DNA of 64,000 nt from Nymphaea colorata (lineage: Eukaryota > Streptophyta > Magnoliopsida > Nymphaeales > Nymphaeaceae): the NCBI RefSeq assembly GCF_008831285.2, contig NC_045150.1, forward strand, positions 11,701,868 through 11,765,867, read 5' to 3'. The notes below the pieces were generated by a model. The model was not told where the DNA came from. It saw nothing but the letters and a program-made list of their open reading frames with translations, and did not search any database. A program made the translations under genes and the position numbers. This document shows, in pieces, positions 1 to 56,621 of the stretch (positions are counted from its first letter, which is position 1; each line of letters opens with the position of its first letter).

Positions 1-2062
1 TTACAACTATTTGCTCATTTGAGGTTTACGACTAACATAGAACTGCTTTTTTGTTGTATTACGTACTTTTATTCATTTTACTGTTGTTAAATATCAGCTT
101 CAAGGGAATTTGTATTGGATGGACTCTATATCAATTGGGGTTGATATTCGTTAGGGTACCAAGCATCCGAAGAAAGAAAATTTGAGGAATTACTTTCTTT
201 ATTCTTTTACATTAAACTTTTAGATGAGGTTAGGCTGGCCTAAAGTCGTAAATGGTGGTGATGGTTGAGTTCATGTCTGCTGCAGTTCTCTTAGTCTGCA
301 ATATTTAGTTGACAATTATTGCCTTTCTTGCATATTGTGGTTAATCTTGAGTAATTACAACGACTCATTCATTGTTCTTTGTCTCTGGCTTCTTTGATTG
401 ATGCCAAGTTAGGTTTCACTAGAGCAACCTTTAGATTGAAATTCTGGATCGAATTGCTGAACCAGTGACAACCGTGTGGAGAAGTTGGGCTGTGTATTTC
501 ATGGTACTTTACATAGTATTAGTTACCTAACTTGGTACTTGAACTTCAATCCTGTCTATCGTTCATTCTATAATAAAACTCAACTTGCTATCCTAGTTTA
601 GTCTGTGAACGACTGCAGCTATTGTAACATTTCTAGCGTAAAGCACACATAACAGCTCCACTGAAGACGATAGATTTGTGGTGACCTGTTGTCTGGCTAG
701 GAGTAAGAATTTCTTTTTATCAAGGTCCCTCTGAGGCTGTTGATTCTGGTATCAATCCAATTCCATCCTTCAAGGCTACCGAAGCTAGATATTCAACTTT
801 TTTTTATTTTTGTTTTGAATGAATTCAACGGAAGACCAGATTTGAAACTTCTTGAGACTACTGGGAAAGCGGGTTATTGAGTCATGAGTTTCTGCATGAC
901 TGCCAAAGCTTGCCTCACTATACCATTCTTTAGTAATTCATAGTAGCGTGCTCTAGCAGATCTGTTACAGGATCAATTCGGATTGGCTTTGGTCTGCTTG
1001 GAAAATGTGGTTTGGTGAACTATATGTGGAGCAATTTGGCATAAATTTATACCTGTTTCAAAATGTAATGTTGGTTCGTTGAAGCCATATAAACCCATAC
1101 CTAAAACTCCCATTAAGATAAAAATGGAACCTTCTGCAGTGTATAAAATGAACTTTGTAGCTGAGTACAGACGTTTCTTTCGTCCTCACATGGTTTCAAT
1201 GCCAATGAAGACTTCATGTACTAATTTTTCTCTTCAGCAGAGAAACTGTATCTAGTGAATCACTGTCGAGAAATTCATCTATGATCTCTGTAATTGTTGG
1301 TGTTTTCATTGTGGACAACATCAATTCATTTGGTTGGCTTACCTGAAATTGTGCATTTTAATCCTTAGAAGCACTTGCGATTTGATTCTTTACCTCCTCC
1401 TTTTAGAGGGCAGGGACAGGAAACAAGAGTTGTTTTAGTTACATCACCAACAACCGAGTAACTTGTGCAAAAACAGTCAGTGAACTGCTGTCCTTTCTGT
1501 TGCTACTGGTTTTGGGTAGTTTTTTTCTTCTCTAATACAAATTAGCTCTACAATTTTAGGTGAACTAAATTTCCTTCCCATGTTTTTGTAACGGTGGCCT
1601 TACTGATGGTTGGTCTGCTGTATTGGGTGATTTGTTATTGGGTGATTTGTTAAAAACTTAAAATGTCACTGATAGTCCAAGTCTGTTACCAAGTTACAGT
1701 AGGCGTCGTCAAGACTGCTAAAAGTGTTTACTGAGTACAAAGTGCAGCACTATCACTCTGGTTGTAGTATTGACGGCTCCCATGTGCATCACCCCTGTTA
1801 GTTGTGTTCGTTCTCTTGGTCACATGTTTGTGTTGTTTCATCTTGTTGCAGTTTCCTCGGTTTTGTTGGATGGTAGCTGATGCCGTTCGGCACTTTTGAA
1901 GAGGCTGCTTGCCTGATGTGGACTGTACAGTGCTTTAGAATAAAAGAAGGGAATAAAGTGGAATAAGTCGATGCCGTTGGCCGTCCTGAAGGACCGTGAA
2001 CCTCTTTTAGGTTTTGGCATAAATTTGTACATCTTTTAACTGATATTCACTATAATAAATCT

Positions 2063-2103: not shown

Positions 2104-2539
2104 GTAAATTCAGAAGAGCTAGTTATTTACAACTGTCTTTGTGGGCAAAAAAGAATGGTGGGTAGGCTCACCGGTGGTGTTCCGTTCCATATGGATTTTT
2201 TCTGTCTACTGCTGCAACATTCTGTGGAGGCCCAAAAGAGGGGGAAAAGAGATGGGTTGAAGGACGCCCGCTTTTCTTTGGGGCTAAAGTTATGTTGGCA
2301 AATGAGCTACATATATCAGTAAAGGGATTGGCTTTTATGAAGTAGAAAAAGAAAAATAGACTAATAGCATTGTTATTAACTTTTATTTCAACCCGGGATT
2401 TTTGCCAGATCATTGCCAGTTTATCGAAAGATTTAAAACACAAAAAAGCCATAAAAATAAAAAGATTCAGACTACCCGATTATTTGTTTACCTTAATCAG
2501 ACTGTGTACAGGATCATGAACTGGCAATTTAAATTAGTT
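2101..2539. other. Unassigned stretch before the F-box relic
   Basis: Short overlapping frames occur on both strands, but none resembles a known protein. I see no feature here beyond a modest local rise in GC. Confidence 0.4.
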
Positions 2540-3551
2540 GCTCAAGAGCAGGTCGTCGCGACCAAGGCGGCCGGAAGGGAAGAAGTAGAAGAAATTACAA
2601 TTCCTTTTGATGTGGCGGACGAGTTTATATTACCGAGGACGAGTTTATATTACCGAGTGTGGCCGGTAGGGACTTGGTGAGGTTCAGGTCGATGGGCTGC
2701 CGATCAAGAACGTCCTCCTTTCTTTACGAGCATAAAAAATCACCACCATGTCCATCAAGTTATCATCTACAGTTCAGGTTGCCGGGGAATGCGACTGACA
2801 GAACCCCAAGGCTTATATTGCATGGACATAACATGTGAGGATACTAACGGCCGCATCAAAGACAACGGTAAGCCTATCAAGATATTGGGAATTTGGGATT
2901 GGAATATTGCCTCCAAGACGCAGTGTTCAACATGTTACCACCGTGTAAGGGTTTGGTCTTCGTTTGAGAATAAGAGTGCTCCCTTGTACCTGTGCAACCC
3001 TGTCACAGGTGAGTCTACCAGCCTGCCTCAGTCCAGTACTGCAGAACTGAGATTGCATGGCTTTGGTTTCGATGATCACAGCAAGGAGTTCATGGTACTT
3101 CATGTATGAGATGTTCAAGCATGTCGGAAAGCTTCCATTAGAGGTCGAGTACATGATGTTGAAGATGAGGTTTACTACCATGAGATACTAAGCGTAGGCA
3201 AAGATTGTTCTTGGAGGGAGCTGGGTCGATTGCCGTTTCGCAGAAGAATACGTGAGCCATAGTGATTGCAATAGTGAATGCTTTCCAGATCATAATCCAA
3301 GGATACTGATTATGGGAGAGCATGAAATCTTGCTCCGTTTCATCGGGGAAGCTCCGATGCTTCTCCATGATTTGGAGCTCTATGATTTGGAGGTGAAAAC
3401 GTTTCGAAAGTTTGTTGTTGATGGGGATGAGAACATTTTTTTGTCACAACGGCCTCCCACCTACATTTATGAACAACATCCTGGGTCTGTCTATTTCGTT
3501 TCTGCACTCCGCAGTTGGTCTAGAATGATCTCCTTGATAGTGGGGCAATAA
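2540..3551 (+). pseudogene. F-box / F-box-associated (FBA) domain protein, broken
   Basis: Intact relatives are substrate-recognition subunits of SCF ubiquitin ligases: an N-terminal F-box binds SKP1 and a C-terminal FBA domain binds the target. Here an F-box-like segment (IPFDVADE, then GRDLVRFRSMG after a shift) lies at about 2600-2710. FBA-type motifs follow: LYLCNPVTGE and LHGFGFDD (about 2985-3075), VYYHEILSVGKDCSWREL (about 3170-3225) and LELYDLEVKTFRKFVV (about 3375-3420). The frame is lost at least three times: a perfect 20-bp tandem duplication (2618-2637/2638-2657) inside the F-box, a stop at 3107, and a frame change at about 3237-3252. The 3' end abuts the B3-like array at 3546. 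I am confident in the family; an active product is very unlikely. Confidence 0.75.
2618..2657 (+). repeat. Perfect 20-bp tandem duplication inside the F-box
   Basis: The 20-mer gacgagtttatattaccgag occurs twice back to back. Twenty is not a multiple of three, so the duplication shifts the frame. Ignoring one copy joins DVADEFILP in frame to the downstream GRDLVRFRS, which marks it as a disabling lesion. Confidence 0.9.
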
Positions 3552-3942
3552 CTTTACCTTTTATATTGTCCATCCTTGATGCAATTTCAAATCCATTACC
3601 GTGTACTTGTTCTTGTTGTTGGATAGTTAAATTTATAGTCACCCTTTTATACGTTGCTTGCACAAAGGCGAAGTGAAAATGAACATCAAATTGATGTTCT
3701 CCACATTTAAATTTGGACAATTCTTCATATTAAGTGGGATAGGAGGCAAATAATTTGTTTGTCTATTTTTATGTCTCTGTCAGTGTCTTTGCTAGACAAA
3801 AGGAAGAAAACAAAGAATATAAGCAAATAAAAAAAAAACGAAAGGCACACAGAAAACAAAGACAAAAAAAATAAATAAAAGAGAGCTCATCTATTTATAA
3901 TGAAACTACTCAAGAATTCATATTGTTTATGTAAAGAGCACT
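3546..3942 (-). pseudogene. B3-like array unit 1 (truncated)
   Basis: The B3-like exon is cut off at its C-terminal side at the junction with the F-box relic, right after the KVIV segment. A single-base loss in the leader before LPPIP and a deletion that removes the FLFTKKLT segment break the frame. The exon-1 start codon reads ATA and the donor GT is changed to AT. The antisense frame runs over the junction into F-box sequence, giving a meaningless fusion. Confidence 0.7.
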
Positions 3943-3994
3943 TAAATCAAACAATTACCAAAGCAATACTGGTTTTAATATATACGTAGAATTG

Positions 3995-4608
3995 ACAAAA
4001 AAAGTATTATTTTTAACTGCATCAAAATCAAAACAATCACATCATGATATTGAAGAAAATGTTTGTCACTGTCTTTTCTATAAAACCACCATCACTTAAT
4101 TTAATTGTCCTCTAAATCATCAAAATAAGGTTTCTGCATGGTATGTAGAATGCTAACGGTATCTCGAGACTTCTTCTTTATCACAATAACTTTACTTTTC
4201 ATGTTTTTCATCCTCAATGCAATTTCAAATCCATTGCCGTGCACTTGTTCTTGTTGTTGGAAAATTAAATTTACAATCAGCCTTCTATACGCTACTTGCA
4301 CAAAAGCGTAGTGAAAACAAACATCAGATTGACTCAGTCGTAAATAAAAACATGTTCTCCACATTTAAATGTAGACAATTCTCTAGATTAAGCGAGATAG
4401 GAGGTAGATAATCTGTCTGCCTACTTTTCATGTCACTTTTAGTGTTTTCTGCTAGCCAAAATAAATAGATAAAAGTAAGAAAAAAAAACACACAAAGCAA
4501 AAACAAAAAAAAAAATGAAGAGCACACATAAGACGAAGACAAAAAAAAAACTAAAAGAGAACTCACCTATTTATAATGAAACCAGTCAAAAGATTTGTAT
4601 TGTTCAAG
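3995..4608 (-). pseudogene. B3-like array unit 2
   Basis: The donor and acceptor are preserved. The exon-1 start codon reads TTG, one extra base follows the acceptor, and deletions after VENM shift the frame before the LSQSDV core. The core then runs open over RRLIVNL and KKKSRDTV but stops early after DDLEDN, before the WWWFYR motif. Confidence 0.65.
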
Positions 4609-4664
4609 GAAAAAGCACTTAAATCAAACATTTACAAAAGCGATACTACTTTTGACAAATACGT

Positions 4665-5232
4665 AGAATTCACAAAAAAATATTGTTTTTAACTGCATTA
4701 AAATCAAAACAATCAGATGTTGATATTGAAGGCAAAGATCGCCAGGTTTCTATACAATTATGACCACTTAATTTGGTTTCATCTAATTCATCTGAATAAT
4801 TTTTCCAAAAGATACATGGAATGGAAACAATAACTTGAGACTTCTTCTTCACCTCAATAATTTCAACTTTTATATTGTCCATCATCATTGCAATTTCAAA
4901 CTCATTGCCGTGGACTTATTCTTATTGTTGGGGAGTTAAATTTACAGTCAGTCTTCTATACGCTGCTTGTATAAAAACAAAGTGGAAACAATCATTGAAT
5001 TGAGTCAATTTTTCGTAAATAAAAACTGCATGTTTTCCACATTTAAATCTAGAAAATTCTCTGGATTAAGAGAGATAAGAGGTGGACTTTATACATGTCT
5101 ATTTTTCATGTCTCCTTTAGTGTCTTTGCTAGTCGTAGAAACATAAAAAAGTAAGAAAACAAAAAAAATGAAACAATAGACAAAGCAAAGACAGAACGCA
5201 GGGCACATAGAAGACAAAGAACTCACCTATTT
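4665..5232 (-). pseudogene. B3-like array unit 3
   Basis: The acceptor CTAG is present. Exon 2 reaches a stop shortly after the leader because the segment before LPPIP has suffered deletions. The C-terminal B3-like part (IEVKKKSQVIVS, NYSDELDE) remains recognisable. The usual exon 1 is missing and replaced by unrelated sequence at 5239-5395. Confidence 0.6.
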
Positions 5233-5238
5233 ATGTAG

Positions 5239-5395
5239 GACACCAGTAACAACATATGCGTTATTAAGTGTTGTTGGATCACAATTTTGAACATTCCGCG
5301 ATCAACCTCGACAAGCTCAGAACCTCACCAAAGGAGGAGCTCTTGGTTCCTACTTGCCTATAGATGAGTTGAAAAATTAACAAAAATAAGAGAGG
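5239..5395. other. Foreign insert replacing exon 1 between units 3 and 4
   Basis: Between two array units about 150 bp does not match the repeat consensus, and this is why the local period rises to about 794 bp. It has no clear terminal repeats and I do not recognise it. The repeat resumes at the acttcaatcaaacaattac segment. Confidence 0.5.
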
Positions 5396-5464
5396 GAGAA
5401 AGAGTACTTCAATCAAACAATTACAAAAGCGATACTGTTTCTGACAAATACGTAGAGTTCACAA

Positions 5465-6083
5465 AAAAAATATTGTTTTTAATTGCGCTAAAATCAAAAC
5501 AATCATATGATGATATTGAAGGAAAGGCTCCACACTGTCTTTTCTATAAAACCATCATCACTTAATTTGGTTTTCCTCTAATTCATCAGAATAAGACTTC
5601 CAGATAGTACGAGGAACGATAACAGTATTTCAAGACTTCTTTCCTCACCACAATAACTTTACCTTTTATGTTGTCCATCTTTAATGCAATTTTAAATATA
5701 TTGTCGTGCACTTATTATTTTTGTTAAGGAGTTAAATTTACAACTAGTCTTTTATACACTGCTTGCACAAAGGCAAAGTAAAAATTAACATCGGAATGAG
5801 TCAGGTTCTTCGTAAATAAAAAATGCATGTTCTTCACATTTGAATCTAAATTATTCTCCGAGTTAAGTGGGATAGGAGGCAGATAGTCTGTCTGCCTATT
5901 TTCCATGTCTTTTTCAGTGTCTTTGCTAGCCAAAAGAAACTGATAAAAGTAAGAAAATAAAAAAAATACAACAACACACAAAGCATAAAAAAATAAAGAG
6001 CACGTAGAAAACAAAGACCAAAAAAATTGAAAGAGAACTCACTTATTTATAATGGAACCAATCAAGAGATTTATATTGTTCAT
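5465..6083 (-). pseudogene. B3-like array unit 4 (intact start and splice sites, premature stop)
   Basis: The best-preserved 5' half of the array. The start ATG, donor (GTGAGT) and acceptor (GGCTAG) are intact, and splicing joins exon 1 in frame to KDTEKDMENRQTDYLPPIP and on through LTHSDVNFYFAFVQ and KRLVVNL. A TAA then replaces the first Gln codon of the QQQEQ segment, so the product would end near residue 95, before the second half of the domain. Confidence 0.65.
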
Positions 6084-6144
6084 GCAAAGAACTCTTAAAT
6101 CAAATAGTTACAAAAGCGATACTGGTTTTGAGAGATACGTAGAA

Positions 6145-6750
6145 TTCACAAAAAAGTACTGTTTTTAACTACATTAAAATCAATACAATCATATGATGTT
6201 ATTGAAGGCAAGACTTGCCACTGTCAATTCTATAAGACAACCACCACTTAATTTGGTTTTCTTTTAATTCATTAAAATAAGGCTTTCAGGTGGTACGTGG
6301 AATGGTAACAGTATCTCGAGACTTCTTCTTCACCACAATAACTTTTTTTTTTACGTAGTCCATTTTCAATGCACTTTTAAATATATTGTCGTGCAGTTGC
6401 TCTTATTGCCATGGAGTTAAAATTTATAGCCAGCTATATAAGCTGGTTACACAAAGGCTTAGTGGAAACCAACATCGGATTGAGTCAGCTACTTCGAAAA
6501 TAAAAACTGAATGTTCTTCACATTTAAATCTAAAAAATTCTCGAGATGAAGCAAGATAGAGGCAGATAATCTATCTACCTATCTTTCATGTCTCTGCTAG
6601 CTATAAGAAACATATAAAAGTAAGAAAATAAAACAACACACAAAACAAAGGAAAAAATGAAAGGCAACAAACAAAGACAAAAAAAATTGAAAAATAAAAG
6701 AAAGCTCACCTATTTATAATGGAACCACTCATGACATTGTTATTATTCAT
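6145..6750 (-). pseudogene. B3-like array unit 5
   Basis: Exon 1 is intact (ATG, MNNNNVMSGSIINR, GTGAG donor). Exon 2 hits a TAG about eight codons after the acceptor, and a further stop replaces a Lys codon before the LTQSDV-equivalent core. In this copy the sequence before exon 1 is also open, unlike most other units. Confidence 0.6.
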
Positions 6751-6799
6751 GCAAATAGTACTTAAATCAAACGGTGGCAAAAGTGAAACTGATTTTGAC

Positions 6800-7444
6800 A
6801 TATACATACAATTCACAAAAAAAAATATATATATTTTTTTTACTGCATTAAAATCAAAACAATCACATGATTGATTTAAGACAAGGCTCACCGCTGTCGT
6901 TTCTATAAAACCACCACCACTTAATTTTGTTTTCATCTAATTCATTAGAATAATGCTTTTAGGTTGTATGTGAAATAATAACAATATCTCGAGACTTCTT
7001 CTTCACCACAATAACTTTATTTTTTATGTTGTTCATATTCAATGCAATTTCAAATTCATTGTCGTGCACTTATTCTTGTTGTTGGGGAGTTAAATTTACA
7101 GCCAACCTTTTATACGATGCTTGCACAAAGGCAAAGTGGAAACGAATATTGGATTGAAACAGCTTCTTCATAAATAAAAACTATATGTTCTCCTCATTTA
7201 AATATGGATAATTGTCCAGATTAAGTGGAATTAGAGGTTGATGCTATGTCTGCCTATTGTTTATATCCCTTTCAATATCTCAGCTAACTATAAGAAACAT
7301 ATAAAAGTAAGAAAACAAAGAAAATAAAACAACACACAAAGCAAAAAAAAAAGGAATGAAAGGCACACAGAAAACAAATACAAAAAAATTAAATAGAGGT
7401 TACATATTTATAATGGAACCATTCATGATGTTAGTATTATTCAT
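6800..7444 (-). pseudogene. B3-like array unit 6
   Basis: The start ATG is present and the donor is changed to a weaker AATAT/GTAAC. Exon 2 begins with an in-frame TGA directly after the acceptor. It is very like unit 7, pointing to a late duplication of already diverged units. Confidence 0.6.
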
Positions 7445-7504
7445 GCAAATAGTACTTAAATCAAACAGTTACAAAAGTGAAATTGATTTTGACATATATA
7501 TACA

Positions 7505-8134
7505 ATTCACAAAAAAAAATATTTTTTTTACTGCATTAAAATTAAAACAATCACATGATGATATTGAAGACAAGGCTCGCCACTGTCGTTTCTATAAAAC
7601 CACCACCACTTAATTTGGTTTTCATCTAATTTATTAGAATAATGCGTTTAGGTTGTGCGTGGAATAATAACAGTATCTCGAGACTTCTTCTTCACCACAA
7701 TAACTTTATCTTTTATGTTGTTCATATTCAATGCAATTTCAAATTCATTGTCCTATACTTGTTCTTGTTGTTGGGGAGTTAAATTTACAACCAACCTTTT
7801 ATATGATGCTTGCACAAAGGCGAAGTGGAAACGAATATTGGATTGAGGCAACTTCTTCACAAATAAAAACTATATGTTCTCCTCATTTAAATATGGATAA
7901 TTGATCAGATTAAGTGGAATAGGAGGTTGATGCTATGTCTGTCTATTATTTATATCTCTTTCAGTATCTCATCTAGCAATAAGAAGCAGATAAAAGTAAG
8001 AAAACAAAGAAAATAAAATAACACACAAAGCAAAAAAAAAAAAAGAATGAAGGGCACATAGAAACCAAATACAAAAAAATTAAATAGAGGTTACATATTT
8101 ATAATGGAACCATTCAAGATGTTCATATTATTCA
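7505..8134 (-). pseudogene. B3-like array unit 7
   Basis: Exon 1 has its ATG and the same weak GTAAC donor as unit 6. Exon 2 has an early in-frame stop. Units 6 and 7 share the intron, donor and leader changes, so they are sister copies. Confidence 0.6.
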
Positions 8135-8194
8135 TGCAAAGAACACTTAAATCAAACGGTTGCAAAAGCGATATTGGTTTTGACAGATACATAC

Positions 8195-8552
8195 AGTCCA
8201 CAAAAAAAGTATTGTTTTTAACTACATAAAAATCAAAACAATCACATGATGATATTGAAGGCAAGAGTCGCCATTGTATTTTCTACAAAACCACCATCAC
8301 TTAATTTGGTTTTCCTTTAATTCATTAGAATAAGGCTTTAAGGTGATACGTGGACTGATAACAGTGTGTCGAGACTTCTTCTTCACCACAATAACCTTAT
8401 CTTTTATATTGTTCATCCTCAATGCAATTTCAATTTTATTGTTGACCACTCGGATTGAGTCAGTTCTTGGTGAATAAAAATTGTATGTTCTACACATTTA
8501 AATTTAGATAATTCTCTAGATTAAGTGGGATAGGAGGCAAATAGTCTATCTC
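8195..8552 (-). pseudogene. B3-like array unit 8 (internally deleted)
   Basis: About 110 bp is missing from the centre of the domain (near 8440), and the 5' half is fused at about 8552 to the 3' end of unit 9. The C-terminal KVIVVKKKSRHTV segment remains readable. The result is a half-length unit, which breaks the array period. Confidence 0.6.
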
Positions 8553-9124
8553 GAGACTTAATTTGTTTTTGAAGGCAAGGCCCACCACTGTCTTTTCTAT
8601 AAAAGCACCACCACTTAATTTGTTTTTCCTTTAATTCATCAGAATAATGTTTCCAGGTGGTACGTAGAATGATAACAGTATCTCGAGACTTTTTCTTCAT
8701 CACAATAACATTAACTTTTATGTTGTCCATCCTCAATGCAATGTCAAATCTATTGTTGTGCACTTGTTCTTGTTGTTTAAGAATTAAATGTACAATCAGC
8801 CTTCTATACACTACTTGCATGCAAAATGTAAACGTGCATCAGATTAACACAGCTTCTTTGTAAATAAAAACAACAAGTTCTCCACATCTAAATCTGGATA
8901 ATTTTATGGATCAAGCGGGATAGGAGGCAGATAATTTGTCTCACTACTTTTGATGTTTTTTTCATTGTTTTTGCTAGCCAAAAGAAACAATAAAAGTAAG
9001 AAGACAAAGAAAATAAAACAACACACAAAACAAAAATAAAAAATGAAGAGCACAAATAAAACCAACATTAAAAGAGAACTTACCTATTTATAATGGAACT
9101 ACTCAAGAGATTTGTATTATTCAT
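8553..9124 (-). pseudogene. B3-like array unit 9
   Basis: Start ATG, a strong donor (GTAAGT) and the GGCTAG acceptor are intact. Exon 2 runs in frame past LPPIPL and then meets a TAA in place of the usual Glu codon. The downstream core (RRLIVHL, KKKSRDTVIIL, YSDELKEKQIKWW) is otherwise open. Confidence 0.65.
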
Positions 9125-9203
9125 GCAAAGAGCACTTAAATCAAACAGTTACAAAAGCGATATTGGTTTTGATAGATACGTAGAATTCACAAAAAGGGAT
9201 TGT

Positions 9204-9797
9204 TCATAACTCCATTAAAATCAAAACAGTCACATTTTGATATTGAAGGCAAAAATTGCCACTATCGTTTCTATGAAATGACGACCACTTAATTTGGTTT
9301 TCCTCTAATTCATTAGAATAAGGCTTACAAGTGATACGTGGAATGGTAATAGTATCTAGAGACTTCTTCTTCACTACAATAACTTTATTTTTTATGTCGT
9401 CCTTACTCAATGCAATTTGAAATCCATTGTCGTGCACTTGTTCTTGCTGTTGGCAAGTTAAATTTACAATCAGCCTTTTATATGTTGTTTGCATAAAGGC
9501 AAAGTAGAAATGAACATCAAATTGAGTCAGCTTTTTCGTAAATAAAAACTGCATGTTCTCCACATTTAAATATAGATAATTCTCTGGATTGAGTGGGATA
9601 TGAAGCGGATAATCTATTTGCATGTTTTTCATGTCTCTACTAACCATAAGAAACATATAAAAGTAAGAATACAAAGAAAATAAAAAAACACACAAAGCAA
9701 AAAATAAAGGGCACATAGAAAACAATGACAAAAAAATTGAAAGAAAAGTCACCTATTTATCATAGAACCACTCAAGGGATTCTTATTATTTAAGCAT
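9204..9797 (-). CDS. B3-like array unit 10, the only copy with an open domain
   Basis: Exon 2 (9204-9639) is open from the acceptor to its stop: SRDMKNMQIDYPLHIPLNPENY, then FLFTKKLTQFDV, KRLIVNL, QQEQVHDNGFQIAL, KVIVVKKKSLDT, YSDELEE-like YSNELEENQIKW and a short hydrophobic end. Intron donor and acceptor lie at 9752/9751 and 9641/9640 (113 bp), in the same phase as the other units. The usual exon-1 ATG reads TTA, but a later ATG in exon 1 (MIN) or those early in exon 2 could start translation. The product would be about 145-150 residues with one B3-like domain and no visible targeting signal. The next unit's ATG lies only 80 bp beyond the stop. Expression is unproven and it may be a recent pseudogene. 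Confidence 0.45.
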
Positions 9798-9879
9798 AGA
9801 ACACTTAAATCAACAAAAAAAAAGCATTGTTCTTAATTGCATTAAAATCAAAGCAATCACATGATGATACTGGTTGGAT

Positions 9880-12045
9880 AGAGAGCCATTTTTTAAACAC
9901 TTATTTATGTATTTATATGGTCATGTAAAGCTTGGAGAGAAGGGCCTTTCAAATACCAAAAATCTTCACTTGGGCAAGCATGGTTGGTGCTAATCCGCTT
10001 CCCAATAGCCACCTATACGGATGGTAGCGCCTATTTGTTCTTATCATAAGACGGTCAAAACTTGGACAATCTTTTGTTATTTAAAATTCGACAAAACATT
10101 TAATCCACAATTTCTTTATGATATATTTCCCGAAACTCATCTATTTATCTCTTCCTTTCTCTGATTGCATTTATAGGGCTAAACGCTGAACTAGTTCTGC
10201 ATTTGTGTATGCGCGTTTATATATGCTTTTATGGCTTTCTGAAATCGCAACCCAAGTCTTCCTTACTTTAAAATTTTAATATCTAAGCTATGATCAATGT
10301 GCCATGTTCTTGGTTTGATTTCAGATCTGCCGGATATAGAGCTAGGCACATTATATCTGGATATACTTATTTTCGATGCAATCCTGCGAGGGAGGGAGGT
10401 CCTCTTAACCTTTGTATTCATAACAAAAATTGAGTTGTACACAAAACCATCACCAATACCATCATAGTGCTACCAAGAATAAGCACTCAATACAAGGAGC
10501 TCTGCCAAACCCTAAGTACTCAATACAAGCATGGAAATCTAATTTCAAATTATGAAAGTTGCATACCAATTATTTTTCTATCTTTTATATTTCCATCGTT
10601 GTTGTTTTTATATCTATTCGATAGAAGCTGGCAGGAGTAATTGGCCAAAGTACCGTGGCTTGATTACAAGGGAAACAAAAATAACAATCTAACTAGTTAG
10701 TAATATGATCTGTTTTGTCCTTTACAAGATCCAACTAACAGGACTAACTGGGATTTAGGTTGGCAACTTTGTCCATGATCACATGAAATTGTATATTTAG
10801 TCTGACCATCTAGAATGAAGAATAGGCATTGGCTTAGCAAAGTGAGGGGCTAAGAATGCCAAAATCAGTTCAACATTAATCTATATATGCGTACCACATC
10901 ACTTCAGTTTGGGGACGAATTATGCAAACGATGGGAAGAATATTCTCGTGTCCACTGTATTAAACTACTGGGGTGCGTACATCTGTATAAACAAAAAAAT
11001 CATTACTGAACATTGTAAAAGAGGTTGCAGCTAGAACACAGACAGAAGAGAAGGGAATTTAAGGAAATAGCAAACAAACTTGGCACCATACTGTCAGGAA
11101 ACGAGCAATAAATGTCACCAATAGGTTAATTTGATGATGAGTCAAGAGTATGATCAAGCATGCAGAGCCAATCAAATGTCCTAAATTCCTAATTGAATCT
11201 CAACAAAGTTTTACCGAGGAAAAAATATTTGGCTCCCCCACTCTTTCTTTCTCTCTCGAATATAATGAATCTCTAACGAAAGAAACTGTCCCTGTTTCTT
11301 TAACATATATAACGAGAGATCTGGAGATAAAAGGGATACGTTATATTATACTGCTTAGGCTTTGAAGAACAACAAAGTTTCACGTTAACATTTCAAAGTT
11401 GGACAGGCATAAGAGCAGTCTTTGCAAGTTGGCAGAGGCCCATTGTTTCTCTTTCTATGAGTTTTTTTCGAAAAACCCAGCGTCTGGCACATGCCATCGC
11501 TTCACCACCTTTTTTTCACTGTGCATGAGCTTTTCAAAAGAAACGCAACGTTTGAGGCGCGCAATCGAGTGCATGGCATCATTGCCTTTACCTCTGTGCC
11601 TCGTTCATGAGCTTTTCAAAAACCCATCGTTCACCGCCTTTTTTCTTTGTGCTTCGTTTCATGACCTATTGGTATCTCAGAGAATTTCTTTTGTTTCTTC
11701 TGAAATAATCGACGGAAAAATCCTACCCGTGGTCCCTATAACAGATTAGATTGGAATACGGTGGATCAGCATTGGATCAACACTTGGGTCACTCGGAGCT
11801 CTCTTTCAGTTCTGAATAGATCCAGATTTGATCCTAATGCATTAATGTTCAATGTTTACTTTGGCAAACGAGAGGAAGATAACACTTGCAACTGTTAGCG
11901 CGGAAGGCATGGGAGATATGGGATTTTGCTTGCCCGATGTTCATTGTTTTTGAAAGCAAGGAAGCTGAAGAGAGTAGGAAAGAAGCTATCTATCTAGCTA
12001 GATGGGGTAAAATTGGAGATGTGCAGCAATATCTTCTGTCACCAA
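9880..12045. other. Intergenic stretch between B3-like array and copia remnant
   Basis: No recognisable gene. Two plus-strand open frames (11150-11365 and 11399-11749) match nothing I know. The second contains diverged internal repeats of a segment around catgagcttttcaaaa, so it looks like repeat-derived chance coding. Confidence 0.4.
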
Positions 12046-12049
12046 ATTA

Positions 12050-13720
12050 CATGTTTATCATTTGACTTAACAGAAGTTTACTTATGAGCTATATTAACAA
12101 ATTTATGAAAAATGTCCTTCTTTTTGCGGGGTTCATAAAAACTACATCTATGTTTCTGACAAGTTCTTCTCAATATCATCATGACGTGTCTTTGCTTTCA
12201 AATTAGATATTTTTATCTTTTGGAACATGCATAAACACTTTGTCTCCAAAAACATGTAAATGGCCGTATTTCATTTTCTTACTAGACTAAATTCTATCGG
12301 ATATATCACCATCTAAATATACATGAGGTAATAGATGTATAACATATGTAGTAGTACATAGAGCTTCGCCCCAAAAAGAATTAGACAATTGTGCTTCAGT
12401 CAACTGACTCTTTTACTAAGGGTTTTATTAATCTTTTCAGCCACATCATTCAACTGATGAGTCTTAGAAGGTATCTTTTGATCTCTTATGTCATGCATCC
12501 ACTAATACTCTTTAGATGTATTTACCTACATTTCATTACGTTTAAATGTCAACTTTCTTTGCTTATGTCTGTCTCTTAATAAGAACATGAAATTATTTGA
12601 ATAATTCAAACACTTGGTCTTTCCTTTTCAAAGTATAGGTTTACAACTTTCCTGAATAATTATCAATGAAAGAGGCAAAATAAAGTGTACCACGATCAAT
12701 AAACCACAACATCTGAGTGCCCTAACAATTTCTTCTTCTTTGAAGATAGATAATTTTTAAATGAAACTATCATTTGCTTTTGACTAAGCAATGATACATC
12801 TTTCTAGCTTTTCTTTCTTCATCTCAAGAAGTATATTCTTTTTAATTAAACAATCAAGATCATTTTCACCCATATGACTCAACCTCTTATACCACAATTT
12901 AGATTTTTCATTCTCTGTCACATGCATTACTTATTTGAAAATTAATGTATGCACAATACATGTTTTACATCCTCGAGCTTCAATACAATCCCATTGTTGG
13001 TTTGTAAATGCACATCATCAACACCAACACTAATAACCTATGACAAACCATCATTACCATTTCAAAACTCAATAATCACTAGAAATATAGGTCATAAATA
13101 TTCTTGATTTGAAGTGACATAGGAAGATGGACCATTATCAATCACACAACTCAAATCATGACTTGTTAAGTTCATGACGTCTTTAGCCTAAACAATAACC
13201 AAGTCATTATGTATAGTTTTGGTGATGTGATTACCATTATTTTCATAATTAATTCTTGGTTTGCATTACTTTTATTTTCTCTCTTCAACTGAAACCAATA
13301 TTTATTGATATGCCCCTTCTCACTTGGTTTGCATTATTCACATTGATTTGCTTCGATTTTTGTCTTTACCTTTCTCACAGTGAATATGCTTCTCCCCCCT
13401 TCTCAGTGACAAACACCTTTGATTGTAACCATGCGCTTTTATTCTTATCTCTTTATTTAAAAGCTCTAACTTTAAGAAGCTTAATAAAGACACCACTATT
13501 TAGAACATAGTTAGTGAGCGAAACATTAAATGTCTCATATGAATTGGACAGAGTAGCAAGCATTTATAACCCTACAACTTCACCCTCAAATTAATACTCA
13601 TGTCAGACAATTTATTAATAAGTCATTGAAAGTCATTCAAGTGATTGACGATAAAATTTCCTTCCTTATACTTAAGTTGCATCATCTATCTGAGGAAAAA
13701 TAATTTGTTGTTGCCGGTTT
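12050..13720 (-). mobile_element. Degenerate Ty1/copia retrotransposon (gag-protease-integrase part)
   Basis: Reading the minus strand from high to low coordinates gives a copia polyprotein in the usual order. There is a gag fragment (HLNDFQ, LINKLSDM; 13480-13650). A decayed zinc knuckle follows (EKGHINKYWFQLKRENK, about 13280-13330). The protease region has DNGP where DSGA/DTGA is expected (about 13130), then NGDDGLS-like NGNDGLS. A GAG-pre-integrase motif LWYKRLSHMGEN lies at about 12865-12905. Integrase pieces include SFIDNYSGK, KDQVFELFK, SFWGEAL, LDGD and YGHLHVFGDKVFMHVPKD (12200-12690). The closest family known to me is Tnt1-like copia. Many stops and shifts are present, and no reverse transcriptase part follows, so the element is truncated and dead. 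Confidence 0.8.
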
Positions 13721-13743: not shown

Positions 13744-14240
13744 TGGACCACAATATGTTTGTGTAGGTTTAATGTTGAATATGATTATAAACATTTTATC
13801 AACAAATTATTGAATGAAACAGCATACTCGCTCATGCTCAAGCTATCATATTTCATCACTCTTACATTCGACCTTTTGAGTAGCAAATACAGAAAGATAC
13901 ATAGCCTTTAGAAATAAGAGGCACTTTATTTTGTTCTATCAAAAATTATAATTTGTGTCATTTAAATTAATCTTATAATTTGTACTCAAATTCATTCTTC
14001 AACCATGAGCTCTCATGATACTTATGTGAGAAATATTAAATATGATCATAAACATTTTCATCAAGAAATTATTGAATTAAACCATATACTTGCTCATGCT
14101 CAAACTCTCATCTTTCATCTCTCATAGATTTGGGCTTTTGAGTATTGTAAATATGGGAAGATACATATCATCTAGAAATAAGAGTTTTTTTATTTTGTTC
14201 TTCCATAAATTATATTTACACAAACACATTGTGGTCAAAA
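13744..14240. repeat. Two diverged direct copies (~255 bp) with short inverted ends, next to the copia remnant
   Basis: The segment beginning aatatgattataaacatttt (about 13778) recurs at about 14037 and continues through gctcatgctcaa, gaaataagag and ttttattttgttct. Outer segments at 13744-13765 and 14219-14240 are inverted relative to each other (tggaccacaatatgtttgtg and its complement). On the minus strand the stretch at 14011-14026 reads CACATAAGTATCATGAGAGC, which loosely resembles an LTR end followed by a primer-binding site for initiator tRNA-Met. Confidence 0.6.
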
Positions 14241-14254
14241 AATGAAATTTTGAT

Positions 14255-16450
14255 ATAGATAAGAGTAAAAAAACAATGAAATAATAACTTCAACATGATT
14301 AGAGAGAACAATTTTAACATGAAAACTCCTTTCAAAATAAAAAGAAAAAACATGAGATTGAAAGCAACTCAAGAACAATCCACTATATATATGGACATCG
14401 CTGCAAGAAGACAAGGCAGAATGTCTCCGTACTGATTAGTATGGAATTAGAGCACTGCAAAAGCCTACAAACCATCACGAGAGAGAGTGTGTGATGGTCT
14501 TTCCATAACAAAATTTGTCTTTCTATTACCCCAATCTTTACTGAACAAGAAGAAAAAAAAAACCTCAAACAATAAATAAAAGCCTTCACTCTTTCAGTAT
14601 CACTTTCTTTCTCTGACAATCCATCTTGTTGCTTCAAATGAGTGAAGAATAAGACTCTCCCAACCGTTATCTCTTTCTTTCTTCAAGAAGAACTCACCAA
14701 GAAAAAGAAACCCTCAAAGCTCATGAGTTCAAAAAAATCATCCGGCTCTCCTTTTCTTTCTCTTATAAATATGTTAATACACAAGATTGCAAAAAAAAGG
14801 GAAAAAAAAAGAAAAGAAAAACCCTCAAGCAAAATAAGAGAACATGGAAAATCATCTCAAAATGAATGGTCAAAACCATGGGGTTGAAAGCAATCTAATA
14901 ACAATCAATTATGTAGTATGAGAATGACTATAATAAGGTAATATACAATGCCTCTACTTCAAAAGCCCATAAACCTCCTTAAGAGAGATACAATAAAGCA
15001 AACCGAGAGTGAAGGGTGAGAGAATATCATCTAATCAAGAGTAATGTATAACGAAATTACTCTTTTTATTGCCTCAATCTTCACAAAACATGAAAAAAAG
15101 AACAAAAGGAAGCCCCAAACAATAAACAAAAGCTTTCTCTCTCTCAATCTCTCACTTTCTCTCTCTCTAACATTCTCTCTTGTCACTTTAAATGAGTGAG
15201 GAATGATACTTTCCCAATCTTTGTATTTTTCTCTTTTCAAGAAAAACTCACCAAAAAGAACAAGAAACCCTCAAAAATCAAGGGTCCAAAAAAAATTCAT
15301 CAGGATCCCCTTTTTTCTCTCTCTTGTATATGTTTAATGCACAAAGTGTAACATGCAACAAAATAATAATTTGAAACAAGATAACTGAGGTATTAATTTT
15401 AACATGAAAATCATCTCAAAATGAAAGGTAAAGTCCACAGTGTTGAGAACAGCCCAATAAAAATCTACTATGCAATATGAAAATGACTACAAGAAGACAC
15501 TATACAATGTCTACACTCCAAGAAACCACAAACCAACACAAGAGAGATACAATAAAGTAAATGAAAAGTAAGGATTGAGAAAATATCACATAATCAACAG
15601 TGCCAGCTTTTTGACAACAAAATCTTTTTTCTTTTAATTTTTTTGATATTCACAAAACAAGGAGAAAAGAACAAGACAAAGCCCCAATCAATAAATAGAA
15701 GCATTCTCTCTCTCTCAATCTTTTACTTTATCTCTCCAAATTGTTGCTTCAAATGAGTGGAGAACAAGACTCTCCCTTTCTTTATCTCTTTTTCTTCTCA
15801 AGAAAACTCATGAAGAAAAAGAAGATACCCTCAAACTCAATGGCTCAAAAAAATCATCTGAATCTTATTTTCTCTATTTTATATATTTTTCAAGCACAAG
15901 AATGCAACAAGCAATGAAATACTAGCCTCAAGTATGATAAGGGAGACACTAATTTTAACATAGAAAATCCTCTTCAAATGAAAGGTAAAAACCATGGAGT
16001 TGAGAGCAACACAATAACAATCTATTATGCAACATGGGAATTGACTATGAAAACGCAATATACAATGTATATACTCCAAAAGCCCACAAACCACCACAAG
16101 AAAGATACAATAAAACAAAGAAAGAGTAAAGAGTGAAAAAATATCATTTAATCAAGAGTGATGGTCTTTTCACAACAAATCATTCCTTTTACTCCCACAA
16201 ACTTCACAAAATAAGAGAAAATGACAAGAGAAAACTTTAATTAATAAATAGAAGCTTTCTTTCTCTCAATCTCTTATTTTCACTCTCTAGAAATCTCTCT
16301 TGTTGCTTCAAATGAGGGGACAACAAGACTCTCCCCCTCTTGATCTCTTTCTCCTCAAGATGCACTCACCAAGAAGAAGAAGAAACCTCAAATTTCAAGA
16401 GCTCAAAAAAATCATTTGGCTCCCTCTTTCATTATCTTTTCTTTTGAAAA
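14255..16450. repeat. Four-unit tandem array, ~530-560 bp period
   Basis: A landmark (aaaatcatctcaaaatgaa and variants) recurs at about 14321, 14849, 15407 and 15965. Each unit contains in order a caacacaataacaat-like stretch, an agagagatacaataaa stretch, a ctctctctcaatctct tract, ttgcttcaaatgag, an actcaccaagaagaa stretch and a TATA-like AT-rich part. The units are diverged and carry no long reading frame. The position just upstream (minus sense) of the copia gag suggests an amplified LTR or leader, but this is inference. Confidence 0.8.
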
Positions 16451-17763: not shown

Positions 17764-19155
17764 ATGGGGGAATGTGAAGGGAGAGGAGAGCATATGCTCC
17801 TGGGTGACGTTGAAGATCAAGTTTGCGTGGGAGAGGCCCTACCATCACTTGCCAGTTCGAGTAAGGATAAATCATGGGCTGCTGTCGTGAATGGGGGGGG
17901 GGGGGGGGTAGCAAAGGGCGTTTGGATTACAGCTTCATTTTCACAAGCCTCCGAAGCGTATGGCCTGGAGTTGCTGACCTAAGGTTCACGTCGGTGGGGA
18001 AAGGTATGTTCCTGCTCCGCACCTCGTCTGAAGATGACCTTAAATTTATTTTGTCTCCTGGTCGATGGTATGTGGGAGGGCGACTCCTCATTGCAAACCA
18101 GTGGCAGCCAGGTATGCCAAGGCGGATAGAGAGCTCCAGTCGAGTCCGCATTTGGATTAGGCTGCCGGAGCTTCCTGTTGAATGGTGGAACCCGCGGGTT
18201 TTCACTGATATTGCTGATCTAATAAGTGGTGCTTTCGTTGAAGCAGATGAGTACACAAGGCATCTCCAGAGGTTTGGTTTTGCCCGTATTAAAATTGAGA
18301 TTCCGCTGGGTTTCTGCCAGAGATTGAGTTGGAGGTTGCAGGGGGGAAGTCTTTGTTCAATCTATTGAATATGAAACAAATGTTAAGTATTGCCAAAAGT
18401 GTGGGTCCACAGCCCACTTCGACGGCTCCTGCTCATTGATTGAGGCATCCAAGGAAGGGGAGAATGTCGCCCCTAATGCTTGGCATCTAGTCAAAGTCCC
18501 AAAAAGAAGACCTCAACCTAACAAGGTTAAAGAGAACCTGCAGTTGCAGCAGAATAAATTCGAAGCCCTTGTCGCAGCTACTTGATGAGAAAGCAGATGG
18601 GGATAGTCCTCACGACAACAGGCCAATAGGCTCCCCTGCTGAGAAGGATCAGGAGATCACCGAGTTTGTGGACACAAACAATGCTCATGCTAGTATTAAC
18701 CTAGTCAGCCACGATTTTCAGAATGGTAGAGCAGAGGGGTTGGCTCCCCATCTAGTCCCCCTGCCACCTGAATCCAAAAAAAGTAACACTCCAAAATCTG
18801 TACCTGCCACAGGGAATTACCCCAACTCGTTGGACGGGAATAACAAGGCTAAGCCGGTAGAGAAGGCCAAGAAAAGATCTCTCAAGCACAGGGAGGTAAA
18901 CGAGACCAAAAGCGAACTAGTCCACCAAAAATAAGTGTCCAATTGAAAATTGCAGGGGGGGAACAGCAAGCAGATCAAGACATCTCCATGATGGGGGCTG
19001 ATCAGGGGTCTCAGGAGGACTTCTCCTTAAATGAAATGGAAACGAGCACTGATGAAGGGCAGACTGGTTCACAGGCTTTAGCTGATGTCCAGGTTGGTGA
19101 TCTTGCAAATACCCGGCCTGCTAGCCGGGAAGGGAGGGAGCACGGCCATTCATGA
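17764..19155 (+). pseudogene. LINE ORF1: DUF4283-like domain plus CCHC zinc knuckle, frameshifted
   Basis: ORF1 proteins of plant L1 elements bind the element's RNA. The first in-frame ATG is at 17764. A DUF4283-type segment covers about 17915-18320 (SVGKGMFLLRTSSEDD, RWYVGGRLLIANQW, VRIWIRLPELPVEWW). A zinc knuckle CQKCGSTAHFDGSC (CX2CX4HX4C) follows at about 18391-18432. A charged, low-complexity tail runs to the TGA at 19153. The frame changes at the G16 run (17893-17908), near 18335, near 18570 and near 18935. The stop overlaps the ORF2 start as ATGA. Confidence 0.85.
17893..17908 (+). repeat. G16 homopolymer in LINE ORF1
   Basis: Sixteen consecutive G follow an AT within the ORF1 frame. 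The DUF4283-like reading before and after the run lies in different frames, so slippage in this tract is the likely first disabling mutation. Confidence 0.85.
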
Positions 19156-22100
19156 ATCTACTCGCATGGAATGTCCGGGGGCTGGCGGCTCTTCCAGCTC
19201 AACATGAGTTCTTACTAACTCTTCGGACCTTGAAAACCACGATTGCTTTCGCTATTGATACTAAGCTTAATTGGGAACAACTCCAGAAATTCCAATTCAG
19301 CTTCCAAATAGACAGTTAGTTAGTAACATTGAGCTCTCAGGACCTTGGGCACGTATTATTGCTGTGTGGGACCCATCGGAAGTGACTCTCCAAGACTGGT
19401 ATGCTCATTCCCATTGGATTGTATTACAGTTTCTCAATATTGAATCTGGACAAAGTTTCGTGGCTGTAGGGGTGTACTTGCATACTGACTTTTGAATTTG
19501 GAAGGACCAATTCTTAAGTCTCGGCTTAGCCTTGAATCATTGCAGTGCGCCAGTTATTTGTTTGGGCGACTTTAATGCAGTCTTAAAGAGCAACGAGAAT
19601 TCTGGCAGGGCACCGGCTCTCCAAGCTTGTCTTGCTCTTTCTAATTTTATCCAACAGTCTGCACTACATGAAGTTTCTTGCCCTGATATGAAGTTCACCT
19701 GGACCAATAACCGTTTAGGCCACAAAAATGTCATGTCCAAGATTGACAGATGCTATGTTTCCAAGGAATGGGTGGATGATCCTGACAACTTGCTGCAACT
19801 GGAGATGCTCCCGCGAACCATATCTGACCATAATCCTATTTTGCTCCGCATTTCTAAGTGTAGGTTTAGAACGTGGGGTTGTTCTCCTTTTCAACATTTT
19901 CAGTATTGGCAGGATATGGTTGGTTATGTGGATCAGGTTCGTTCAGCCTGGGCGGTCGACGTGAGGGGCTGCGCTATGATTAAACTCATTCACAAATTGG
20001 AGGCTACTAGGGACAAGCTGAAAGTTTGGTGTAAAGGTGGAGCCAATGACCTCCCTCACCAAATAATGGACATTAAGAGGAAAATCAAACACCTCCAAGT
20101 CCTCAGTGAGAGTGGCCAACTTGAAGCGATCGATGAAGAATGTTCTCTCAAACATGATCAATCCAAGCTGTTGTGGTTAGAAGAACGTATGTGGCACCAA
20201 AAATCCAGAATCAAATGGATGAGGGATGGCGATCTTAACACCAAATTCTTTCAGGGGGTTGCAAATGGGAGGAGGAGGCGGAATAAAATCGAAACCATAC
20301 ATCATGAGGGTCAGCTCCTAATTGAAACTCCAGAGATTTTTACAGCTTGCACGAACTACTTTGCCAGCCTCCTAGGGACTACTGAAGGCTCAGGGTGCTT
20401 ACCTCACTCTCTCGCATGGGGTCCGACTGTGTCGTCGGAAGAGAATGCCGATCTTTTGAAACCTGTTTCAGAATCTGAAATAAACTGGGCAGTCATGGAG
20501 GCAGATAGGGACTCCGCCCCGGGCCCGGACGGGTTTGGCAATAGTTTTTTTCAGAGCAATTGGCCCATTGTGCAGGAGGTTGTTTCAGGGGCTATTCGTG
20601 GATTTTTTGACTCTGGCAGACTGGTCAAGTTGTTAATAAGACACATATCACTCTTTTGCCTAAGGAGCTAAGTGCGAACCAAGTAGAGAAGCTTTGGCCC
20701 ATCTCCCTATGTAATAGCATGCTGAAATTCATCACGAGGATTATCGTACTGCGCATGCGGCCTATCCTTAATAGGATCATCTCCAAGAATCAAAATGTGT
20801 TTCTCCCAGGAAGATGCATCCAGGATAGTTTCCTCCTAAGCCAAGAAATAGTCCACATTTTTCAAAACAGTAAGAAGAAAACAGCATGTATTAAAATCGA
20901 TTTAAGCAAGGCCTATGACCGTGTCAATTGGGATTTCTTGAAGGCCACCCTCCGCCACCTTGGGTTTCATGAGATATGGGTCTAAAAAATTATGATTCTC
21001 GTGACCACAGTTAGATCGTCACTTCTCATAAATGGCAAAGAAGGAATGTGGTTTGTTAACAAGAGAGACTTAAGGCAGGGAGACCCGTTGTCCCCCTATC
21101 TATTTATCTCTATTATGGAAATGCTCAGTCGCAGCGTTCAAGCGTATATCAACAACAAGCAAATTAGAATCCCATCAATGGGGGCTGGCACCACTTCTCC
21201 CTTCTCCACTCTTTATGCCGATGATATCATGCTCTTCATTGAAGGTAGGCGGAAGAACCTGCGTTCTTTGAAGATGTGTTTAGATGAATTTTTCTTGTGT
21301 TCAGGCCTAGCCATGAACAACTCCAAAAGTTCCCTTTTTTCTTTTAACATGGACAGTCGTGAGCTTGATCGGATTGAACAGGAGATCGGTTGGCATCAAG
21401 GTAAGCTCCCATCTACGTATCTTGGCACTCCCCTTCAGACGAAGGAAGTAACAGAGGAACAATGTAGACACCTAATCTTGCGGTCTTCCCAAAAACTAGC
21501 ACTTTGGAAGAAAAAATGCCTCTCTGCTGCAGGCCGTCTTAGCTTAATCAAGCACGCCCTTTCGTTGCTGCCATCCTACTGGAGCTTGGTGGTTAAACTC
21601 CCTGCCACCATTTGCAATCAATTGAATAAAATGGCGGCTAAGTTTTTATGGGGTGATATGGCTGATCATAAAAGCATCCACCGCATTAAATGGTCCACCT
21701 TATGTCTCCCTCTTCTAGAGGGAGGTGTTGGTCTCAAAGATATCAAAGAAACGAATCTGGCCAACATGGCCTATCTAGTATACCGTGCGTCTCAGCAGTC
21801 CTCTCCTTGGGCGGCCCTGATTAAAGGTCGGTATTGCGAGCGAAAAGGGCTACTCGATAGCAGTGTTAAGGGTAAAAGGGTATCCCATGTCTGGCGTAGG
21901 GCGTTGCAGTCCTGGCGCAAGGTTAATGAGAACGTTGGCTGGAAGATCGGCAATGGCAATTTAGCAAAGTTTTGGACTGACCATTGTTGAGCTTATTGGC
22001 TAATGGACAAGATTCCCCCCTCACACTCATCTTATTCATGATACTATCACCTGCTCAGTTAAAGAGCTCTTGGAGGAGAATGGGGAGGCCCTAATGGACT

Positions 22101-33251: not shown

Positions 33252-33379
33252 GATTCCTTTTGTTTCTTTTGTTTTCTCTCTTCTTTTTCACTGCTCAGAT
33301 GGAAATGGGCAACATTGATTTGGTGGGCACCAAGGAAATTGAAGGGAAATGAAGCCTAAATGCAAGATCAAGAGAGGAG

Positions 33380-56128: not shown

Positions 56129-56621
56129 CTATGGGGTGTTAAGTATGTAAACTAAATATTGGTATATGGGGTGTTAAGTATGTAAATTGTAAACTAAATA
56201 TTATACCAACTGACATATATTGGATTTATTGAAGGAGCCCCCGACCATAAGAATGGAAGGATAGAGGATAGGGCTTCGCCCGCGTGTCTAGATAGTGGGT
56301 GCATCCTTCCGCCCACCCAAAAATTTAGGTCCGCAAAGACCAGTCTTAAGCTCAGGCTCAGCTAGCCAATCTCAATATTAAGCTATGGGGTGTTAAGTAT
56401 GTAAACTAAATATTGGTATATGGGGTGTTAAGTATGTAAACTAAATATTATACCAACTGACATATATTGGATTTATTGAAGCAGCCCCCGACCATAAGAA
56501 TGGAAGGATAGAGGATAGGGCTTCGCCCGCGTGTCTAGATAGTGGGTGCATCCTTCCGCCCACCCAAAAATTTAGGTCCGCAAAGACCAGTCTTAAGCTC
56601 AGGCTCAGCTAGCCAATCTCA
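56129..56621. repeat. Near-perfect tandem duplication, 254-bp unit
   Basis: Copy 1 is 56129-56382 and copy 2 is 56383-56621. They differ by one 7-bp indel (in the aaattgtaaactaaa part), a G/C change (gaaggagcc versus gaagcagcc) and the end. Each copy contains a shorter internal direct repeat of tatggggtgttaagtatgta. No coding content. The near-identity implies a recent event. Confidence 0.95.

What the first reader, a model, noticed from the sequence alone, without database searches (positions are those of the whole stretch)
3546..9875. Head-to-tail array of about ten miniature two-exon genes with a B3-like domain
About ten units of 640-690 bp repeat the same gene structure on the minus strand, with splice sites and intron phase largely preserved. 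The encoded ~150-residue protein has a B3-like pattern (LTQSDV ... EQVHDNGFEI ... KVIVVKKKSRDTV ... NQIKWWWFYR). Single-domain B3 genes amplified at this density would be unusual. The family could be a lineage-specific REM/DUF313-type expansion or something not yet described.
Basis: partly seen in the sequence, partly recalled or inferred. Interest (0 to 1): 0.7.

Follow-up and report, generated by a model that had tools for sequence, protein, structure and literature searches.

The report
Decayed tandem B3-like gene array
A stretch of plant chromosome holds about nine head-to-tail copies of a small gene, probably descended from a plant DNA-binding (B3-type) gene, but nearly all copies are broken, so it is most likely a graveyard of pseudogenes rather than a cluster of working genes.

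Summary
The array is real: window 3546-9890, minus strand, eight more or less whole units of about 670 bp plus a partial unit at each end, whole units 75-82% identical, one pair 92%. The consensus looks coding and the two-exon layout is largely kept. But only unit 9097-9766 has an open domain; the other 8 of 9 with domain sequence are broken, and divergence looks neutral. So these are mostly pseudogenes. Pfam finds no B3 in units or consensuses. Yet the consensus aligns end-to-end with At2g31720-like (DUF313) B3 domains better than 945 of 945 decoy segments, so descent from such a gene is probable, not proven. The genome has at least four more degenerate arrays, on contigs C1 (two), C12 and C13; one is a 197-bp repeat, 16 copies, of the domain's C-terminal part. 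Repeated amplification is inferred. No intact parent was found, but the protein-level genome search did not complete. Interest is modest.

The parts
3546..3904 (-). u1: truncated unit; frame lost through a 1-nt and a 28-nt deletion; splice donor GT lost
3905..4582 (-). u2: pseudogene copy; several frameshifting indels and 2 stops in register
4583..5224 (-). u3: pseudogene copy; 4 deletions in the coding part and 4 stops in register
5225..6058 (-). u4: pseudogene copy with an insertion of over 100 bp at its exon-1 end; 6 stops in register and 1 frameshift
6059..6723 (-). u5: pseudogene copy; 8 stops in register (one shared with the consensus) and several indels
6724..7419 (-). u6: pseudogene copy; 6 stops in register and indels; 92% identical to u7 (youngest duplication)
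7420..8110 (-). u7: pseudogene copy; no coding indels but 6 stops in register
8111..9096 (-). u8: pseudogene copy with an internal partial extra copy (offset 314 bp); stops and frameshifts in both parts
9097..9766 (-). u9: the one unit whose domain frame is open; stop only at consensus codon 149
9204..9639 (-). u9 putative exon 2 (acceptor AG at 9641-9640); 144 codons from 9638 plus stop
   Evidence: acceptor place read from the sequence
9640..9752 (-). u9 putative intron, GT...AG, pyrimidine-rich
   Evidence: read from the sequence
9753..9763 (-). u9 putative exon-1 end; the consensus start codon is lost in u10, a later in-frame ATG lies at 9763-9761
9767..9890 (-). u10: array edge, fragment (end of domain exon plus exon 1); no stop in the part it keeps
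2360..3551 (+). Broken neighbouring gene, F-box/KIB1-4-like by my reading (Pfam KIB1-4 only E 0.014, 15.3 bits against a cut-off of 27.4), tail-to-tail with the array; fragments of it recur beside three of the four other arrays

Best explanation
This is a tandem array of pseudogenes. A small two-exon gene, probably a diverged single-domain B3 gene of the At2g31720-like (DUF313) type, was multiplied head-to-tail, most likely by unequal crossing-over (inferred). Copies of the locus, with a broken F-box/KIB-like neighbour, were spread to other places, most likely by segmental duplication (inferred). The copies then decayed in a way that fits no selection (tested within this array); an excess of C-to-T change at CG and CHG sites suggests that the array was methylated (suggestive only). 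It most likely makes no protein of importance today (inferred, no RNA data); one copy is still open, which neutral simulation does not make surprising.
For: Array anatomy. Consensus open while copies are broken. Neutral pattern: substitutions per codon position 181/1428, 166/1421, 188/1423; intron 100/976; after the frame 110/792; pN/pS 0.74 against neutral simulations of 0.71 (sd 0.07) or 0.84 (sd 0.08), by mutation spectrum. At least one stop-free copy among 7 long units in 10-20% of the same simulations, which ignore indels and demand all 154 codons, more than u9 has. Star-like unit tree, 1 of 6 inner branches well supported. B3 descent: consensus against three recalled DUF313 sequences, which Pfam recognises as PF03754, scores 32.5, 0 of 300 and 0 of 150 shuffles as high, 0 of 945 decoy segments as high, best decoy 8.8. 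Against two real PF03754 genes of the same genome it scores 27.0, 1 of 500 shuffles as high, 0 of 945 decoys, best decoy 18.5. A five-locus profile aligns over 104 columns with the recalled set (score 24.4; 100 shuffles, maximum 14.0) and over 16 columns with the real pair (21.4; maximum 12.1). Dispersal: five places in the genome, pieces of the broken neighbour beside arrays at C12, C1:1.05 Mb and C1:38.16 Mb. Methylation-like decay: C-to-T/G-to-A at CG+CHG 99 of 476, at CHH 229 of 1633, Fisher p 0.0005.
Against: Pfam gives no B3 or PF03754 hit for any of 6 array ORFs, 15 unit pieces or 7 consensus sequences; the family search of the genome did not list the window array. PDB searches gave no B3 chain. 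Both AlphaFold models are unusable, and no B3 is among the 50 of 81 Foldseek rows shown. hhalign probabilities are low (5.5-12.6%). The TEM1 alignment agrees only at its N-terminal end. Neutrality is a fit, not a proof: with the non-coding spectrum 9% of simulations fall as low as 0.74. u9 remains open. Consensus-to-consensus dN/dS between this array and C13:4.92 Mb is 0.41, which hints at former constraint, though its codon positions differ nearly evenly (0.213, 0.222, 0.246); and the C12, C1:1.05 Mb and C13:4.92 Mb consensuses carry 5, 3 and 4 stops, so part of the amplification may have followed inactivation.
Confidence: 0.77

Rival explanations
1. The decayed units come from a gene family unrelated to B3, possibly undescribed; the B3-like pattern is chance resemblance of a few motifs (FLFTKKLTQSDV, NQIKWWWFYR).
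For: No B3 match in Pfam or PDB for units or consensus; low hhalign probability; no usable structure.
Against: End-to-end alignment with DUF313 beyond 945 of 945 decoys and beyond all or all but one of the shuffles; with the recalled set the signal grows to full length when all five arrays are pooled, though not with the real pair.
Confidence: 0.17
2. A working, lineage-specific expansion of about ten miniature B3 genes.
For: Kept splice sites in most units, one open unit (u9), consensus coding.
Against: 8 of 9 units with domain sequence are disabled; neutral-looking codon pattern; in the consensus only 62 bp lie between the stop codon and the next putative ATG; u9 lacks the consensus start codon.
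Confidence: 0.03
3. A non-coding satellite or transposon-derived tandem repeat that never coded.
For: Arrays at five places, one with a 197-bp period.
Against: Consensus open over 145-192 codons (145 reached by 8 of 4000 shuffles, 192 by none); splice signals in phase; no transposase match in Pfam for 6 array ORFs; no framing repeat evident in the window self-comparison or in the 25 of 45 inverted pairs shown.
Confidence: 0.03

Closest known systems
At2g31720-like B3 proteins (Pfam PF03754, formerly DUF313; placed with REM-type B3 by PMC9391945)
   Same: Colinear domain: LF-K-LT-SDV start, LT-QQ/EE stretch, G-(E/I)-(I/V), K-rich strands, T/G-W, L-E-x-x-I-x-x-W-x-F-x-R end
   Different: Below Pfam's cut-off; the consensus lacks the RLS-P, K-R/L-W and EGD positions; copies are broken and very short (about 150-170 residues, against stop-to-stop frames of 359 and 456 residues for the own-genome genes L001 and L002)
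Tandemly duplicated REM/B3 genes of Arabidopsis, poplar, rice and citrus (PMC2688026 and PMC7161213, passages read)
   Same: REM genes are known to multiply in tandem; citrus tandem pairs average Ka/Ks 0.52 and two pairs are near 1; possible pseudogenes are mentioned there
   Different: Here the unit is a single short domain gene at about 670-bp spacing, nearly all copies broken, and arrays recur at five loci
Plant pseudogenes in general (PMC7935947, abstract start in a search listing only)
   Same: Duplicated, disabled, neutrally drifting gene copies (general knowledge)
   Different: The density and the second-level 197-bp array from a gene piece are less usual (my judgement, not tested against a survey)

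Membership tests
At2g31720-like B3 (PF03754) | Score over the curated profile cut-off (24.4 bits) | tested here: not met
   No hit for 6 ORFs, 15 unit pieces and 7 consensus sequences; positive controls did hit: 3 of 3 recalled, 2 of 2 real
At2g31720-like B3 (PF03754) | End-to-end colinear sequence similarity to known members | tested here: met
   Template-global score above 945 of 945 decoys for recalled and for real members; weak in absolute terms, 1 of 500 shuffles higher with the real pair
B3 superfamily (PF02362) | Score over the profile cut-off | tested here: not met
B3 superfamily (PF02362) | Seven-stranded open barrel with two short helices | tested here: inconclusive
   AlphaFold mean pLDDT 39.3 and 41.2; the second model has strands and one helix in a B3-compatible order by my reading, but no B3 is among the 50 of 81 Foldseek rows shown
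B3 superfamily (PF02362) | DNA binding, nuclear localisation | not testable with these tools
   needs protein
Pseudogene array | Disabling mutations and neutral divergence | tested here: met
Pseudogene array | No expression | not testable with these tools
   no RNA data here
High-copy transposon | Many dispersed copies with terminal structure or transposase | tested here: not met
   44 matches at 5 places, a lower bound; no transposase hit for 6 array ORFs; no framing repeats evident

The most novel reading that the evidence does not exclude
A small B3-derived gene has repeatedly turned into tandem repeats in one plant genome: one amplification behind the window, C12 and C1:1.05 Mb arrays, one separate at C13:4.92 Mb, and a third, 197-bp sub-exon amplification at C1:38.16 Mb. 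Something in this sequence or its chromatin favours recurrent amplification, and the methylated arrays may act in trans, through small RNAs, on surviving B3 genes.
Probability: 0.12. Interest if true: 0.5.

Novelty: new member of a known kind. Interest (0 to 1): 0.25.

Why it matters
It is mainly a caution: an array with preserved splice sites and an open consensus can look like a burst of new transcription-factor genes while being dead. The five arrays, at different divergence and unit lengths, give a small natural series of how a plant gene turns into a tandem repeat.

Tried and rejected
Pfam, NCBIfam and PDB sequence searches with single units, read-through units and consensus proteins gave only weak, scattered, mutually inconsistent hits, all below the curated cut-offs where these were shown (YueH, MCM4_WHD, Pterin_4a, CBAH, DUF5655 and others; the strongest was Pox_A8, E 0.00056, 19.5 bits against a cut-off of 25, for the C1:38.16 Mb consensus), rejected as chance. 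Two AlphaFold jobs were unusable, and a Foldseek search of the second model had no match at E 0.001 or better. A profile-HMM scan of the window with the recalled DUF313 set ranked two array ORFs first and second, but only at E 0.61 and 3. Alignment A4 took L003 on the wrong strand and was not used; the test used L001 and L002 only, of three genes found. A local-score version of the profile test was weak for the pooled unit profile (17 of 300 shuffles as high), and recalled sequences d1 and d2 singly gave z 2.9 and 3.7. That all units are exons of one multi-domain gene was considered: the consensus frame ends after the domain and I saw no clear onward donor, so it was set aside by inspection only. 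Searches returned nothing because the locus files were looked for under wrong names; repeated properly.
Full report
What is there. The window lies in a plant-type genome held as G000 (contig C13, 11,701,868-11,765,867; 407.8 Mb, 783 contigs). 'Plant' is my inference from the LRR receptor kinase and plant-type B3 genes. Between 3546 and 9890, on the minus strand, a unit of about 670 bp is repeated head-to-tail: a truncated u1, eight more or less whole units u2-u9, and a fragment u10. Identity between u2-u9 is 75-82%, but u6/u7 are 92% alike. u4 has an insertion and u8 an internal partial copy.

Gene structure. The majority consensus has an open run of 145 codons, or 192 when codon 108 is read TGG, a close call between the units (alignment). 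Of these, 38 codons lie in the putative intron, so the exonic part is 107 or 154 codons. In 4000 dinucleotide shuffles the longest run reached 107 in 170, 145 in 8, 154 in 5 and 192 in none (one search gave 94 and 3 of 2000 for 107 and 154). A GT...AG intron of about 110 bp precedes the domain exon; the donor GT is kept in 8 of 9 and the acceptor AG in 9 of 9 junctions. The putative exon-1 ATG is in phase and is kept in 5 of 9 rows. So the unit most likely descends from a coding, two-exon gene of about 150-170 codons. No RNA evidence was available.

Decay. In-register stops and indels were listed for all units: u1-u8 are each disabled. Only u9 is open through the domain, ending at codon 149; the fragment u10 holds too little to judge. 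Among the aligned pieces of all five arrays found, the next longest open stretches are 84 codons or less. Substitutions against the consensus are spread evenly over codon positions (0.127, 0.117, 0.132), and non-coding parts diverge similarly (0.102 and 0.139). pN/pS is 0.74 against 0.71 (sd 0.07) or 0.84 (sd 0.08) in neutral simulations; with the second spectrum 9% of simulations are as low. u9 is not exceptional (0.80). A stop-free unit among seven appears in 10-20% of simulations, which ignore indels and demand all 154 codons. C-to-T changes are commoner at CG and CHG (99 of 476) than at CHH (229 of 1633; p 0.0005), as methylation would give, though CHH is also high. The consensus is a majority call, so these rates are approximate.

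Is it B3? Direct tests fail: no Pfam B3 or PF03754 hit for 6 ORFs, 15 unit pieces or 7 consensus proteins, and no PDB B3 chain. Intact family members do hit, so the search works for them. A profile alignment that must span the whole domain does separate the consensus from chance. Against three recalled DUF313 sequences it scored 32.5 (shuffle maxima 8.3 of 300 and 16.3 of 150), and none of 945 translated segments of the rest of the window came near (maximum 8.8). Against two real PF03754 genes of this genome it scored 27.0 (1 of 500 shuffles higher, at 34.0; 0 of 945 decoys, maximum 18.5). One real B3 domain, TEM1, gave z 3.4, 0 of 150 shuffles as high, but that alignment agrees only at its N-terminal end. 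Pooling 88 aligned pieces of the five arrays, hhalign aligned 104 columns with the recalled set at score 24.4 (100 shuffles, maximum 14.0; probability only 12.6%), and only 16 columns with the real pair at 21.4 (maximum 12.1; probability 5.5%). I read this as probable descent from an At2g31720-like B3 gene that had already lost several hallmark residues. It is not a member by the curated criterion.

The rest of the genome. A DNA search with u9 found 44 matches at five places, a lower bound: this array (11 matches), C12:22.966-22.973 Mb (15), C1:1.050-1.052 Mb (5), C1:38.162-38.165 Mb (6) and C13:4.922-4.926 Mb (7). In the fetched stretches no unit with the whole domain open was seen. The C1:38 Mb array is a 197-bp repeat, 16 copies, of the domain's C-terminal part. 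In a tree of 27 units, rooted at the midpoint, the seven C13:4.92 Mb units form their own group (100/100); the single C1:38 Mb unit falls outside a nearly unresolved star of window, C12 and C1:1.05 Mb units, but with weak support (89/69). I infer at least three amplifications: the shared one, the C13:4.92 Mb one, and the 197-bp one; gene conversion within C13:4.92 Mb could mimic the second. Pieces of the broken gene next to the window array (2360-3551) lie beside the C12 and both C1 arrays, and C12 and C1:1.05 Mb share a further 455-bp flank at 84%, as expected if a block was duplicated; none was seen at C13:4.92 Mb, where only about 2 kb was fetched beyond either edge. Between the window and C13:4.92 Mb consensuses dN/dS is 0.41 over 78 synonymous sites, no interval computed; this hints at former constraint, but codon positions differ nearly evenly (0.213, 0.222, 0.246). 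The C12, C1:1.05 Mb and C13:4.92 Mb consensuses carry 5, 3 and 4 stops, so some spreading may have followed inactivation.

Known context. PMC2688026 and PMC7161213 (passages read) report tandem duplication of REM/B3 genes, with some tandem citrus pairs near neutral. PMC9391945 (part 1 of 2 of the text read) describes PF03754 as a flowering-plant, little-studied family close to REM. Seven answered searches of the open library, on B3 with DUF313, At2g31720, REM/B3 with tandem and pseudogene, and satellites from gene pieces, listed no paper whose title or abstract start describes an array like this; full texts were not screened beyond the passages named.

Verdict. The ordinary explanation, a decayed tandem array of a probable B3-type gene, fits best. 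Mild interest remains in its apparently repeated amplification and in the step from gene to 197-bp repeat.

Noticed in passing
window 13771-16438: A second diverged tandem array, period about 543 bp (14505-15860 against 15048-16418, 73% identity), and a shorter one (13771-13953 against 14032-14217, 81%). No open frame of 100 aa or more there; looks non-coding.
   Followed up: partly
L027 3643-6747 (C1:38.16 Mb): 197-bp tandem repeat, 16 copies, derived from the C-terminal part of the same B3-like unit.
   Followed up: partly
window 2360-3551: Broken F-box/KIB-like gene (my reading) on the plus strand whose end abuts the array; fragments recur next to the C12, C1:1.05 Mb and C1:38.16 Mb arrays.
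   Followed up: partly
window 17871-23197: LINE-type retrotransposon relic: DUF4283, endonuclease, reverse transcriptase and zf-RVT matches in separate frames.
   Followed up: no
window 30621-33287: LRR receptor kinase gene with a long open frame.
   Followed up: no
L001 and L002 (C1:24.52 Mb): Two neighbouring PF03754/B3 exons about 3.8 kb apart in open frames of 359 and 456 residues; L002 has a Pro/Gln-rich internal repeat.
   Followed up: partly
window 1-147 and 11597-12141: Stretches that also match around the C1:38.16 Mb array (L027), 77-92% identity; possibly dispersed repeats or remains of a duplicated block.
   Followed up: no
window 56129-56621: Two-copy 247-bp tandem duplication, 96% matches.
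   Followed up: no
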